Assembly: GCF_036240795.1 (NCBI RefSeq) | Contig: NZ_CP108454.1 | Location: 1,984,001-2,048,000 of the forward strand | DNA: 64,000 bases | From: Streptomyces sp. NBC_01268 | GTDB lineage: Bacteria > Actinomycetota > Actinomycetes > Streptomycetales > Streptomycetaceae | Direction: 5' to 3' | Shown here: piece by piece, positions 53,885 through 58,547 of the stretch | Numbering within the stretch: the first letter of the stretch is position 1 | Layout: each line of letters starts with the position of its first letter | The notes under the pieces: generated by a model | Databases searched by the model: none | The model's input: the letters and a program-made list of their open reading frames with translations, nothing else | What the model was told of the DNA's origin: nothing | Made by a program: the position numbers and the translations under genes

Positions 53885-54649
53885 TCAACCGGCCGCAAGA
53901 TCGCCGGCGCGCTCCCGCTGGGGCCGCCAGTAGCCGAGGGCGTGCACCCGCTCCTTGGGCAGGCCGAGCCCCTTGCGCACGTACGAGGCGAGGGTGCGCG
54001 TGGTCGCGGTGTCGCAGGCGATCCAGACGTACGGGTCGGAGGTGGCGGCCACGAGCGCGGGCAGCTCCTCGCGGACCCGGGCGGCCAGGGCGGCCCCCGC
54101 GTCCTCGCGCGGCACCCGGCGGAGCTCGTGCCGGTCGGCGTCGAGGCGCATCGGCAGCGCCTCGTCGGAGGCGTGGGCGGTCTCGAACCAGAGCGTGGCG
54201 GGGGTGCCGGGGAAGGCGTCGAGCAGCGAGTTCATGGCGGGCAGCGAGGCGGCGTCGCCGATCAGCAGGAGGTGGCCGGGGGCCGGTTCGGGCGCGGTGA
54301 AGCCGGTGCCCTGGAGGGTGGCCTCGACGGTGTCGCCGGGGGCGCAGGTGCGGGCCCAGTGGCTGGCGACGCCGTCGTGGAGGGCGAACTCCAGGCTGAA
54401 GGTGCCCGCTTCGGGGTCCGGGTCGACGAGGGTGTAGGCGCGCTGGTGGGGCTTGCCCGCCTGCTCGAACCAGAGCCGCACCCACATGGTGGGGTGCACC
54501 CCCGCGGCGGCGAGCAGCCCGCCGTCGGTGAAGCCCACCCGGCGGTAGTGCTCGGTCACCTGCTCGGCACCGGTCACCGTGAACGTGAAGTCCCTGCCGC
54601 GGAACAGCCTGAGGACGACGCCCTCCCAGCCATGGCCGGTGCGACCCAC
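53885..54649 (-). CDS. Siderophore-interacting protein (FAD/NAD(P)H ferric-siderophore reductase)
   Basis: 254 residues. An N-terminal ferredoxin-reductase-like FAD domain with RAYTLVDPD (the R-x-Y-T/S flavin motif) and SHWARTCAPGDTV, and a C-terminal NAD(P)H domain with LLIGDAASLPAM and the closing LGYWRPQRER (SIP family YW.P..). The cytoplasmic enzyme reduces iron(III) in imported siderophores. GTG 54649 has GGAGGGGG upstream. It is divergent from the Ntn hydrolase gene across an iron box, so it is expected to be on when iron is scarce. Confidence 0.9.
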   Translation of the reverse strand: MGRTGHGWEGVVLRLFRGRDFTFTVTGAEQVTEHYRRVGFTDGGLLAAAGVHPTMWVRLWFEQAGKPHQRAYTLVDPDPEAGTFSLEFALHDGVASHWARTCAPGDTVEATLQGTGFTAPEPAPGHLLLIGDAASLPAMNSLLDAFPGTPATLWFETAHASDEALPMRLDADRHELRRVPREDAGAALAARVREELPALVAATSDPYVWIACDTATTRTLASYVRKGLGLPKERVHALGYWRPQRERAGDLAAG

Positions 54650-54701
54650 CCCGACCCCCTCCCCTGTCGACCCTGCGACCCTGTCGGTCCTGTAGATTAA
54701 T

Positions 54702-54720
54702 TTAGGTCAGCCTAACCTAA
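54702..54720. promoter_or_regulatory. Iron box (IdeR/DmdR1 operator)
   Basis: TTAGGTCAGCCTAACCTAA is a 19-base interrupted palindrome that differs by one base from the consensus TTAGGTTAGGCTAACCTAA in the left arm and one in the middle. It lies 52 bases upstream of the siderophore-interacting protein gene and six bases before the Ntn hydrolase ATG. IdeR/DmdR1 with Fe2+ would repress both directions. Confidence 0.88.
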
Positions 54721-54726
54721 GAAACG

Positions 54727-56898
54727 ATGATCGGATCGGGGCCGAACGCAGTGAGCACCGAGGTCTACCGGGACCCCTATGGCATCCCGCACCTGCGCGC
54801 CGGCGGTCCGCGCGAACTGGCCCGCGCCCAGGGCCTGGTGACCGCGCGGGACCGCGCCTGGCAGCTGGAGGTCGAGCGGCACCGGGCCCAGGGCACCACC
54901 GCCGCCTTCCTCGGCGCGGCCGAGACCGGCTGGGACGCCTTCGTACGGCAGGCCAGGCTGGCCGACACCGCCCGCCGCTGCCACGACCGGCTGGACGCGG
55001 AGACGGCGGCGTGGGTGCGGGCGTACGTGGACGGGGTCAACGAGGGCCTCGCGGAAGGCGCCCGGCGGGCACCGGAGTTCGCGGCGACCGGCCTGGCGCC
55101 GGGGCGCTGGGAGCCCTGGACGCCGCTCGCGGTGTGGCTCTCCACCCACATCCTCTTCGCCGGCTTCCCCACCAAGCTGTGGCGCGACCAGGTCGCGCGG
55201 CGGCTCGGTGAGGAGTGGACGGAGCTGTTCGCCACGGACGGCCCCGGCACGGCGGGCTCCAACGGCTGGGTCGTCTCCGGCGCCCGGACCGCGAGCGGCG
55301 CGCCGATCGTGGCGGGCGACCCGCACCGCTTCATCGAGGCGCCCGGCGTCTACCAGCAGATCCGGCTCTCCTGCCCCGAGCACGACGTCCTCGGCCTCGC
55401 CGTCCCGGGGGTCCCCGGGCTCGCCCACTTCGGGCACACGGGCCGCGTCGCCTGGGCGATCACCAACGCGATGGCCGACTACCAGGACCTCTACCGCGAG
55501 CGCCTGCGCCGCCACCCCGACGGGCGCGTCGAGGCCCTCGGCCCGGACGGCTGGGAGCCCGCGACCGCGCACACGGAGACGATCCGGGTCGCGGACGCGG
55601 CACCGGTCGCGATCGAGGTGATCGAGACCGCGCGGGGGCCGGTGATCATCGGCGCGGACGGCGGGAGCGGAGCCGCCCCGGGCAGCACGGCCGACACGGG
55701 CCACGGGGGCGACACCGGCCACGGGGACAGCGTCCCCGTGTGGGAGGCCGTCAGCCTGCGCTACCCGCCCCGTGTCACCGGTGAGTCGGGCTTCGCCGCG
55801 CTGCCCGCGCTGCTGCGGGCGCGGAACGTCGAGGACGTGGACCGGGCGCTCGACCGCTGGATCGAGCCGGTGAACGTCGTGCAGGCGGCCGACGCCGACG
55901 GCGGGCTGCTGCACCGGGTCGCCGGGTACGTGCCCGTGCGCGACCGGCTCAACTCGCTGCGGGTGGTGCCCGCCTGGGAGGCCGCGCACGCCTGGACGGG
56001 CGAGGCCGCGGCCACGCCCCGCGCCGAGGTCGGGGAGCAGGCGGTCATGGCCAACGCGCGCGGACTCGCCGCACCGCTGGGCGTCGAGTTCGCGCCGCCG
56101 CACCGCGCCGAGCGGATCAGCGCGCTGCTCGACGCCTCGAAGGCCTGGACGCCGGCCGCGATGGGCGCCGTCCACACCGACACCGACAACCCCTCCGCCC
56201 GCCGACTGCTCGACGCCGTACGGGACACCGACGAGGCGGCCCTCTCCCCCGGCGCCCGGGACGTGCGCCGCGCGCTCCTCGGCTGGGACCGGCGGATGGA
56301 GGCCGACAGCACGGACGCCGCTCTGTACGCGGCGGTGCGCGGGGCGGTCGTCCGCCGGCTCGCGGCGCACGAGGCGTTCACGGAACTGCGCACGCCCGCC
56401 CCGTACCCCGAGCTGTTCCGGCCCTGGCTGGCGCTGGGGCCGCGGGTGGCCTTCGCTTTGGAGACGCTGCTCGTCGCCGGGCCCGTGCCGACCGGGGACG
56501 TCCGCGGGATCGTGCGCGCGTCCCTGGAGGAGGCCGGGGCCGCCGACGCGCCGCCCGCGTGGGGCGTGACGCACCGGCTCGCGCCCTGGCAGGCGCTGCC
56601 GGACGAGGAGCACTCCCCCGACGCCGCGTGGCCGGGACTCGGCGGCGACCACGACTGCGTCCTGTCGACGTCCTCCGTCCCCGGCTTCACCGACCGGTCC
56701 GCCCGCGCCTCGGCCGCCCGCTACGTCTGGGACCTGGCCGACCGCGAACGCAGCCTGTGGGTCGTGCCGTTCGGCGCCTCAGGGGTGCCCGGCGACCCGC
56801 ACCACCGTGACCAGCTGCCCCTGTGGCTGCGGGGCGGACTCGCCCCGGTCGTCACCGACTGGAACGATCTCGTGAAGGAAGAGCATGAGCAGAACTGA
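54727..56898 (+). CDS. Penicillin-acylase-family Ntn hydrolase, iron-regulated
   Basis: 723 residues. Layout of penicillin/acyl-homoserine-lactone acylases: alpha part residues 1-177, then the autoproteolytic site at Gly177-Ser178 (TAGSNGWVVSGARTASGAPIVAGDPH), where Ser178 would become the N-terminal nucleophile of the beta chain. Later conserved parts are GHTGRVAWAITNAMADYQDLY and the closing FGASGVPGDPHHRDQ. There is no signal peptide, so the enzyme is cytoplasmic, unlike most acylases. An iron box lies directly upstream, and the GNAT gene overlaps by 14 bases. Hydrolysis or transfer of acyl groups on hydroxamate siderophores is a reasonable guess. I recall a similar pair linked to arylated desferrioxamines (desG/desH), but cannot verify this. 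Confidence 0.85.
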   Translation: MIGSGPNAVSTEVYRDPYGIPHLRAGGPRELARAQGLVTARDRAWQLEVERHRAQGTTAAFLGAAETGWDAFVRQARLADTARRCHDRLDAETAAWVRAYVDGVNEGLAEGARRAPEFAATGLAPGRWEPWTPLAVWLSTHILFAGFPTKLWRDQVARRLGEEWTELFATDGPGTAGSNGWVVSGARTASGAPIVAGDPHRFIEAPGVYQQIRLSCPEHDVLGLAVPGVPGLAHFGHTGRVAWAITNAMADYQDLYRERLRRHPDGRVEALGPDGWEPATAHTETIRVADAAPVAIEVIETARGPVIIGADGGSGAAPGSTADTGHGGDTGHGDSVPVWEAVSLRYPPRVTGESGFAALPALLRARNVEDVDRALDRWIEPVNVVQAADADGGLLHRVAGYVPVRDRLNSLRVVPAWEAAHAWTGEAAATPRAEVGEQAVMANARGLAAPLGVEFAPPHRAERISALLDASKAWTPAAMGAVHTDTDNPSARRLLDAVRDTDEAALSPGARDVRRALLGWDRRMEADSTDAALYAAVRGAVVRRLAAHEAFTELRTPAPYPELFRPWLALGPRVAFALETLLVAGPVPTGDVRGIVRASLEEAGAADAPPAWGVTHRLAPWQALPDEEHSPDAAWPGLGGDHDCVLSTSSVPGFTDRSARASAARYVWDLADRERSLWVVPFGASGVPGDPHHRDQLPLWLRGGLAPVVTDWNDLVKEEHEQN

Positions 56899-57448
56899 GT
56901 ACGCCCGGACCGTCGAGGGCTTCGGCTCCGTCCGCGTCGACCGCATCGACCCCGAGCAGCACGCCGAGCTCATCCACCGCTGGGTGAACGAGGAGCGCGC
57001 CCGCTTCTGGGGGATGAACGGCACGACCGTCGAGCAGGTGCGGGAGATCTACGCGCACCTCGACTCGCTCACCACCCACCACGGCTTCCTGGTGCACCGG
57101 GACGACGTGCCGGTCGGCATCTTCCAGACGTACGACCCCGAGGCCGACCGGATCTCCGAGTGCTACGAGGCACGGCCGGGCGACATCGGCGTGCACCTTT
57201 TCGTGGCGCCCTCGGCCGCGCCGGAGCGGGGCTTCACCGAGCAGCTGTTCGGCGCCCTGCTCGACTTCGCGCTGACCGACCACACCCGGATCGTGGGCGA
57301 GCCGGACGCCGTGAACGAGAAGGTGCTCGCCCGGCTCGCGCGCAGCGGCTTCGAGCTGGGCCCCGAGATCACGCTTCCCGAGGTGGACCTGCCGGAGGTT
57401 TTCATCCCGGAGAAGCGGGCCCGGCTGGTCTTCTACACCGGGGCCTGA
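56885..57448 (+). CDS. GNAT N-acetyltransferase of the siderophore-biosynthesis type
   Basis: 187 residues. GSVRVDRIDPEQHAELIHRWVNEERARFWGM at the start and HLFVAPSAAPERGFTEQLFGALLDFALTD are typical for the IucB/DesC-like acetyltransferase family (PF13523) that acylates hydroxylamines in hydroxamate siderophore synthesis. It overlaps the Ntn hydrolase end and is therefore under the same iron box. AAGGAAG lies six bases before the ATG. It may acylate N-hydroxycadaverine-type units with an unusual acyl group. Confidence 0.83.
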   Translation: MSRTEYARTVEGFGSVRVDRIDPEQHAELIHRWVNEERARFWGMNGTTVEQVREIYAHLDSLTTHHGFLVHRDDVPVGIFQTYDPEADRISECYEARPGDIGVHLFVAPSAAPERGFTEQLFGALLDFALTDHTRIVGEPDAVNEKVLARLARSGFELGPEITLPEVDLPEVFIPEKRARLVFYTGA

Positions 57449-57452
57449 CGGC

Positions 57453-58547
57453 TCAGCCGATGACCCGCCCGTTGACGATCACGCGCCGGGGCGCCGCCAG
57501 CGCGCGGACGTCGGCGCGCGGGTCCTCGCCGTAGACGACGAGGTCGGCCGGGGCGCCCTCCTCCAGGGAGGGGCGGCCCAGCCAGGCGCGGGCGCCCCAG
57601 GCCGTCGCGGAGAGCGCGTCGAGGGCGGGGATGCCCGCCTTCGTCAGCTCCTCGACCTCGGCGGCGACCAGGCCGTGCGCCAGGGAGCCGCCCGCGTCGG
57701 TGCCGACGAAGACCGGGATCCCGGCGTCCCAGGCGGCGCGGACCGTGTCGTACCGGCGCTCGTGGAGCCGGCGCATGTGGGCCGACCAGCGCGGGAACTT
57801 CTCCTCGCCACCGTCCGCGAGGTGCGGGAAGGTCGCGATGTTGACCAGGGTCGGGACGATGGCGACGCCCCGCTCGGCGAAGAGCGGGATGGTCTCCTCA
57901 GTGAGCCCGGTGGCGTGCTCGATGCAGTCGATGCCCGCCTCGACCAGGTCGCGCAGCGAGTCCTCGGCGAAGCAGTGCGCGGTGACCCGGGCGCCGAGCC
58001 GGTGCGCCTCGGCGATGGCCGCCTCGACCTCGGCGCGCGGCCAGGACGGGGCCAGGTCCCCGAGGTCGCGGTCGATCCAGTCGCCGACCAGCTTGACCCA
58101 GCCGTCGCCGCGCCGCGCCTCGCGCCCGACGTACGCGACCAGTTCGTCGGGCTCGATCTCGTGGGCGTAGTTGCGGATGTAGCGGCGGGTGCGGGCGATG
58201 TGCCGGCCCGCCCGGATGATCTTCGGCAGGTCCTCGCGCGCGTCGATCCACCGGGTGTCGGAGGGCGAGCCGGCGTCACGGATGAGCAGGGTGCCGGCGT
58301 CCCGGTCGGTGAGCGCCTGCTTCTCGGCGGTGGCCTCGTCGACCGGGCCGTGCTTGTCGAGCCCCACGTGGCAGTGGGCGTCGACCAGACCGGGCAGCGC
58401 CCAGCCCTCGACGGTCAGGGCCTCGCCGGCCAGGGCGCCGGGGCGCTCGAACGTGATCCGCCCGTCGACGCACCACAGTTCGTCCCGTACGTCCTCCGGG
58501 CCGACGAGCACCCGCCCCTTCACATGCAGCACCACGTGATCGCTCAT
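57453..58547 (-). CDS. Metal-dependent amidohydrolase family protein
   Basis: 364 residues. GLVDAHCHVGL (HxH metal motif near residue 57), ARVTAHCFAEDSL (third His), CIEHATGLT and FVGTDAGGSLAHG (metal Asp) form the TIM-barrel amidohydrolase site; the N- and C-terminal composite domain (VKGRVLVG..., PADLVVYGEDP) matches the imidazolonepropionase-like/prolidase type. Substrate unknown. It converges on the GNAT gene with four bases between. Start ATG 58547 is the first in the frame. Confidence 0.87.
   Translation of the reverse strand: MSDHVVLHVKGRVLVGPEDVRDELWCVDGRITFERPGALAGEALTVEGWALPGLVDAHCHVGLDKHGPVDEATAEKQALTDRDAGTLLIRDAGSPSDTRWIDAREDLPKIIRAGRHIARTRRYIRNYAHEIEPDELVAYVGREARRGDGWVKLVGDWIDRDLGDLAPSWPRAEVEAAIAEAHRLGARVTAHCFAEDSLRDLVEAGIDCIEHATGLTEETIPLFAERGVAIVPTLVNIATFPHLADGGEEKFPRWSAHMRRLHERRYDTVRAAWDAGIPVFVGTDAGGSLAHGLVAAEVEELTKAGIPALDALSATAWGARAWLGRPSLEEGAPADLVVYGEDPRADVRALAAPRRVIVNGRVIG

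What the first reader, a model, noticed from the sequence alone, without database searches (positions are those of the whole stretch)
54649..57448. Iron-box divergon with cytoplasmic penicillin-acylase-like enzyme and siderophore GNAT
The 19-base iron box at 54702-54720 lies between a siderophore-interacting reductase and an operon of a penicillin-acylase-type Ntn hydrolase (Ser178 nucleophile, no signal peptide) and an overlapping PF13523-like acetyltransferase. No siderophore synthetase is nearby. The pair could edit or acylate desferrioxamine-type siderophores or their diamine precursors using unusual acyl groups, or release iron by cleaving a chelated siderophore together with the reductase. 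I have a vague memory of such genes being proposed (desG/desH) for aryl-desferrioxamines, so the pair may be described only in part.
Basis: partly seen in the sequence, partly recalled or inferred. Interest (0 to 1): 0.72.

Follow-up and report, generated by a model that had tools for sequence, protein, structure and literature searches.

The report
Known desferrioxamine-B accessory locus, desJGH
This is a Streptomyces copy of a gene group, published in 2025, that lets the bacterium make the iron-scavenging drug molecule desferrioxamine B instead of only its ring-shaped relative, so the finding is real but essentially already explained.

Summary
An iron box (54702-54720) separates a divergent siderophore-interacting reductase (53885-54649, -) from an overlapping pair: a penicillin-amidase-family Ntn hydrolase (54727-56898, +) and a PF13523 acyltransferase (56885-57448, +). 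The locus is already described. Augustijn et al. 2025 (PMC12161575) named it desJGH (SCO4048-4050) in S. coelicolor, with a predicted DmdR1 site. Loss of desG or desH cut desferrioxamine (DFO) B about 1000-fold or 16-fold and raised DFO E. Their model: DesG removes succinyl from N-hydroxy-N-succinylcadaverine and DesH puts acetyl on. My data fit. The host genome has desEFABCD about 1 Mb away. In a sample of 199 genomes of the genus, all 112 with a DesG match also have DesD. DesH follows DesG in 80 of 80 named relatives, fused in 15. Foldseek ranks D-succinylase and a class III cephalosporin acylase first. Small additions: desJ is divergent in the 46 of 80 relatives that have it; DesG probably starts at GTG 54751. 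Ordinary, low interest. I found no in-vitro assay of DesG.

The parts
53885..54649 (-). desJ: siderophore-interacting protein (SIP/FAD_binding_9), ferric-siderophore-reductase-like, 254 aa, GTG start
   Evidence: Pfam; 32% identical to own DesF over 186 aa; divergent homologue found in 46 of 80 relatives
54702..54720 (.). iron box (DmdR1-type operator, predicted) between the two divergent genes
   Evidence: a box with at most 3 mismatches lies near the start of desG (sought from 250 bases upstream to 60 downstream) in 71 of 80 relatives
54727..56898 (+). desG: penicillin-amidase-family (S45) N-terminal-nucleophile hydrolase; proposed desuccinylase of N-hydroxy-N-succinylcadaverine; the real start is probably GTG 54751
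   Evidence: Pfam; structure neighbours; start codon survey
55258..55260 (+). codon of Ser178 (723-aa numbering), the predicted N-terminal nucleophile of the beta chain, after Gly177
   Evidence: 81 of 81 invariant; aligned to residue 1 of solved beta chains
56885..57448 (+). desH: GNAT acyltransferase of the DesC type (PF13523), proposed N-hydroxycadaverine acetyltransferase
   Evidence: Pfam; 35% identical to own DesC over 175 aa; follows desG in 80 of 80 relatives

Best explanation
It is the desJGH locus, an iron-repressed accessory set that tunes the desferrioxamine pathway encoded about 1 Mb away. When iron is short the DtxR-type repressor leaves the box and both transcripts are made. DesG matures by self-cleavage before Ser178 and removes the succinyl group from N-hydroxy-N-succinylcadaverine (HSC), giving back N-hydroxycadaverine. 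DesH, made from the overlapping gene, acetylates it to N-hydroxy-N-acetylcadaverine (HAC) before DesC can put succinyl back. The higher HAC/HSC ratio lets DesD make the acetyl-capped linear DFO B rather than only cyclic DFO E. DesJ is a second ferric-siderophore reductase, not needed for making DFO. Shown in S. coelicolor by others: the DFO B/E shift in mutants, and co-expression that fits the predicted DmdR1 site. Inferred: that this copy does the same, the self-cleavage, and the chemistry of DesG and DesH.
For: Same gene set, box and family pair as SCO4048-4050 (PMC12161575: abstract, sections 13 and 14 read whole, passages of others). Own genome holds desE, desF, iron box, desA, desB, desC, desD in order; of its 10 matches to the DtxR-type DNA-binding family one stands out (72 bits; the next is 30). 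In a sample of 199 genomes of the genus DesG matches (E at most 1e-100, partial matches counted) in 112 and DesD in 155, and all 112 DesG genomes have DesD. In a sample of 296 genomes of the class, 11 DesG-positive ones lie outside the genus and 9 of them have DesD within 10 kb. In 8 of 80 named relatives des biosynthetic genes lie within 4 kb of desGH. DesH follows DesG in 80 of 80, in one open frame in 15, among them S. atratus as the paper states. Foldseek ranks D-succinylase 1-4 and a class III cephalosporin acylase 5-6; both also lead, after 35sz, by sequence.
Against: No enzyme assay of DesG or DesH was found in the papers seen. S. coelicolor proteins were not fetched and aligned here; identity of the locus rests on gene content, box, family rule and the S. 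atratus fusion check. 43 of 155 DesD genomes in the genus sample lack DesG at the threshold used; this agrees with DFO E-only producers but was not tested. Two genomes outside the genus have a DesG relative of about 50% identity and no NIS synthetase, and these keep the same active-site residues, so the residues do not by themselves mark the DFO role. By structure Z the acidic-acyl link is weak: N-acylhomoserine-lactone acylase MacQ (30.3) ties with D-succinylase (30.9), and among single beta chains penicillin G acylase (21.1) ties with glutaryl-7-ACA acylase (21.3).
Confidence: 0.9

Rival explanations
1. Editing at the chain end: DesG removes the terminal succinyl from an assembled linear oligomer (for example a DFO G1-type trimer of HSC) and DesH acetylates the freed N-hydroxyamine, turning it into DFO B, rather than acting on the monomer.
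For: Inference: it would give the same mutant phenotype (DFO B lost, DFO E up) as in PMC12161575. A term search of that paper for 'trimer', 'linear' and 'DFOG' showed no passage that discusses it.
Against: The published model uses the monomer and fits the reported dependence of DesD on HSC/HAC supply (PMC12161575 section 15 passages). No direct data either way.
Confidence: 0.1
2. Aryl-desferrioxamine capping: DesG supplies or transfers phenylacetyl-like groups onto desferrioxamines, as first proposed.
For: The earlier proposal (Cruz-Morales and colleagues) is reported second-hand in PMC6401478 and PMC12161575; penicillin G acylases share the fold, and by Z their beta chains tie with glutaryl-7-ACA acylase.
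Against: No aryl-DFO known in S. coelicolor, and DFO B depends on desG there. The nearest solved relatives of known name are a succinylase and a cephalosporin acylase. The original paper was not held.
Confidence: 0.04
3. Iron release: DesG cleaves ferrioxamines inside the cell, together with the reductase DesJ, to free iron.
For: Divergent reductase gene next to the same box.
Against: No desJ match within the stretch held beside desG in 34 of 80 relatives; published desG and desH mutants lose DFO B production, while the desJ mutant makes more.
Confidence: 0.02

Closest known systems
desJGH locus of Streptomyces coelicolor (SCO4048-4050), Augustijn et al. 2025, PMC12161575
   Same: SIP, PF01804 hydrolase and PF13523 acyltransferase with a predicted DmdR1 site, outside the desEFABCD cluster
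   Different: The paper calls it an operon; here and in the 46 of 80 relatives with a neighbouring desJ that gene is divergent; the S. coelicolor orientation was not checked. Truncation figures in the paper imply about 240, 781 and 205 aa; here 254, 723, 187.
DesG of S. venezuelae (SVEN_1503), PMC6401478
   Same: desG with an iron box upstream of the start (passages read)
   Different: Not fetched; discussed there under the aryl-DFO idea
D-succinylase, Cupriavidus sp. P4-10-C (PDB 7eby, 7ea4)
   Same: S45 Ntn hydrolase fold over nearly the whole length, DPHR stretch; by its name it removes succinyl groups
   Different: About 24-27% identity; acts on D-amino-acid substrates (PMC11241749 passages); 824-residue chain
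Class III cephalosporin / glutaryl-7-ACA acylase (PDB 4hsr)
   Same: Ntn hydrolase, shared GDPHR and HF(A/G)H stretches at beta 20-24 and 57-60
   Different: About 30% identity; beta-lactam side-chain substrate, by its name

Membership tests
desGH accessory locus (antiSMASH rule of PMC12161575) | PF01804 and PF13523 matches within 1 kb | tested here: met
   genes overlap by 14 bases
desJGH locus | DmdR1-type iron box upstream of desG | tested here: met
   binding itself not testable here
desJGH locus | SIP gene desJ, a DesF paralogue, next to desG | tested here: met
desJGH locus | Host also carries desABCD | tested here: met
desJGH locus | desG and desH are needed for DFO B production | not testable with these tools
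   shown by others in S. coelicolor
S45 penicillin-amidase Ntn hydrolases | Internal Gly-Ser with Ser as beta-chain N terminus, and Asn/His active-site residues (this list of residues is recalled) | tested here: met
   Gly177-Ser178, His200 and Asn383 invariant in 81 of 81; structure match. Self-cleavage not tested; that Asn383 is the oxyanion Asn is inferred
Penicillin G acylase (aryl-acyl specific) | Phenylacetyl specificity | tested here: inconclusive
PvdQ (NF051460) | Equivalog score cut-off 950 bits | tested here: not met
   30.8 bits

The most novel reading that the evidence does not exclude
DesG is a succinyl-specific editing enzyme that works on the end of the assembled or growing desferrioxamine chain, with DesH capping the freed end, so that DFO B is partly made by trimming and re-capping rather than by supply of acetyl monomers; the enzyme would have been recruited from an older family acting on acylated diamines, of which the DesG relatives beside amine-oxidase-like genes (L098, L099) are survivors.
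Probability: 0.08. Interest if true: 0.45.

Novelty: already known. Interest (0 to 1): 0.15.

Why it matters
It shows that a striking-looking orphan pair far from any siderophore cluster is part of the route to desferrioxamine B, an iron-overload drug. The comparison adds support to the 2025 model (nesting of DesG within DesD genomes, resemblance to D-succinylase). It also offers a testable reason why two S. globisporus strains reported to have identical des clusters were reported to make different desferrioxamines (PMC12525621, passages).

Full report
What is there. The window lies in an 8.5-Mb single-contig genome; the closest named DesG matches are from Streptomyces. At 54702-54720 is an iron box, TTAGGTCAGCCTAACCTAA, not expected by chance (0 in 100 shuffles) and one of three sites found in the genome with a degenerate pattern that I wrote with this box in view. 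On its left, on the minus strand, is a SIP/FAD_binding_9 protein (53885-54649). On its right are a PF01804 penicillin-amidase-family protein (54727-56898) and a PF13523 acyltransferase (56885-57448), overlapping by 14 bases. The hydrolase start is more likely GTG 54751, since 72 of 80 relatives have a start codon near that point and 14 of 80 near the upstream one (no chance control was run).

It is in print. Augustijn et al., PLoS Biol 2025 (PMC12161575; abstract, sections 13 and 14 read whole, other passages by term search) describe SCO4048-4050 of S. coelicolor as desJ (DesF paralogue), desG (penicillin amidase family) and desH (DesC-like), a locus outside the desferrioxamine cluster with a predicted DmdR1 site, found through iron-related co-expression data. 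Inactivating desG or desH lowered DFO B about 1000-fold and 16-fold and raised DFO E; complementation restored DFO B. Loss of desJ raised DFO B. They propose that DesG desuccinylates HSC and DesH acetylates the product. Nine reported producers lacking desGH made only uncapped DFOs. An earlier paper (PMC6401478, passages) notes SVEN_1503 as the best DesG candidate, with an iron box, and reports the older aryl-DFO proposal.

Tests made here: the host pathway. desE, desF, an iron box, desA, desB, desC and desD lie in order at about C1:3014767-3021891, about 1 Mb from the window locus. Own DesJ is 32% identical to own DesF over 186 aa and own DesH 35% to own DesC over 175 aa. Ten places match the DtxR-type DNA-binding family, four over its cut-off; one stands out at 72 bits and is the likely repressor.

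Relatives. A DesH match follows desG in 80 of 80, within 169 bases or fused. A 19-base box with at most 3 mismatches, sought from 250 bases upstream to 60 downstream of the extrapolated start, is found in 71 of 80; eight of the other nine have 9 or 10 mismatches at best, which is the background, and L070 has 4. A desJ match (E at most 1e-5) is found in 46 of 80, divergent in all 46. Of the 9 without a box, 5 have desC-desD upstream in the same direction, 3 have desE near and one is L070. Fifteen of 80 have desG and desH in one open frame, including S. atratus, which the paper also lists as fused. In 8 of 80 desA-D genes lie within 4 kb.

Co-occurrence. In a sample of 199 genomes of the genus DesG matches (E at most 1e-100, partial matches counted) in 112 and DesD (same threshold) in 155; all 112 DesG genomes have DesD, 43 have DesD only, 44 neither (Fisher p 4e-20, not corrected for relatedness). 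In a sample of 296 genomes of the class, which shares some genomes with the first sample, DesG is found in 30; 28 of these have DesD (each at E about 1e-173 or better), and in the 9 of these outside the genus the two genes are within 10 kb. The two exceptions, G258 and G316, have no PF04183 match at all. Their DesG relatives (about 50% identical) have no DesH match and no box with 4 or fewer mismatches in the 20-kb stretches and lie near a MarR-GNAT fusion gene and a flavin amine-oxidase-like gene in both.

Mechanism evidence. Gly177-Ser178, Asp198-Pro-His-Arg201, Glu204, His234, His237, Asn247 and Asn383 are invariant in 81 of 81 sequences. They are also kept in four further sequences, three of them only 45-50% identical and two of these from the non-DFO setting above; other columns (window residues 210, 252, 380) vary there. 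So these residues mark the enzyme group, not the DFO role. By sequence the best solved relatives are 35sz (named only 'penicillin acylase family protein'), 4hsr and D-succinylase 7ea4, all with the DPHR stretch. The predicted structure (mean pLDDT 77.6, pTM 0.85) matches D-succinylase (ranks 1-4) and class III cephalosporin acylase (5-6) first by Foldseek. By Z, uncleaved cephalosporin-acylase precursors lead (36.9-33.5), then D-succinylase (30.9; 649 residues, rmsd 3.4), tied with the acylhomoserine-lactone acylase MacQ (30.3, 17% identity against 26%). Among single beta chains class III cephalosporin acylase leads (24.8), while glutaryl-7-ACA acylase (21.3) and penicillin G acylase (21.1) tie. 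The resemblance to a succinylase therefore rests on Foldseek rank and sequence identity, not on Z, and a fold match does not show substrate. It fits desuccinylation; it does not prove it.

Verdict. The locus meets the published description of desJGH in every feature that could be tested, and nothing found in the window sets it apart. Modest additions: divergent desJ in all 46 relatives that have it (orientation in S. coelicolor itself not checked), the nesting of DesG in DesD genomes, 15 of 80 fusions, a probable start correction, and the resemblance to D-succinylase. The main open point, shared with the paper, is the real substrate of DesG (monomer or chain end).

Noticed in passing
L098:8949-11018 and L099:9225-11285: DesG relatives (about 50% identity) in two genomes without any NIS synthetase lie near a MarR-GNAT fusion gene and a flavin amine-oxidase-like gene, which hints at a role in acylated di- or polyamine use.
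   Followed up: partly
L096 (G000:C1:6198000-6215000): Second NIS siderophore cluster of the host: two IucA/IucC-FhuF proteins, a PF13523 domain and a diaminobutyrate aminotransferase-like gene.
   Followed up: partly
L097:3440-3458: Third iron box found in the genome lies just upstream of a gene for a DUF2470 protein (281 aa), not an obvious siderophore gene.
   Followed up: partly
G079 and G128: Two separate near-full-length DesG matches in one genome, far apart on the same contig.
   Followed up: no
literature, PMC12525621: S. globisporus bja209 and 4-3 are reported with identical des clusters but different products (DFO E and DFO B); the term desG does not occur in the text held. A relative, S. 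globisporus 1912-4Crt (L055), carries a fused desGH with iron box, so a difference at that locus is a candidate cause.
   Followed up: no
57453-58547 (-): Amidohydrolase-family gene converging on desH; no link to the locus was tested.
   Followed up: no
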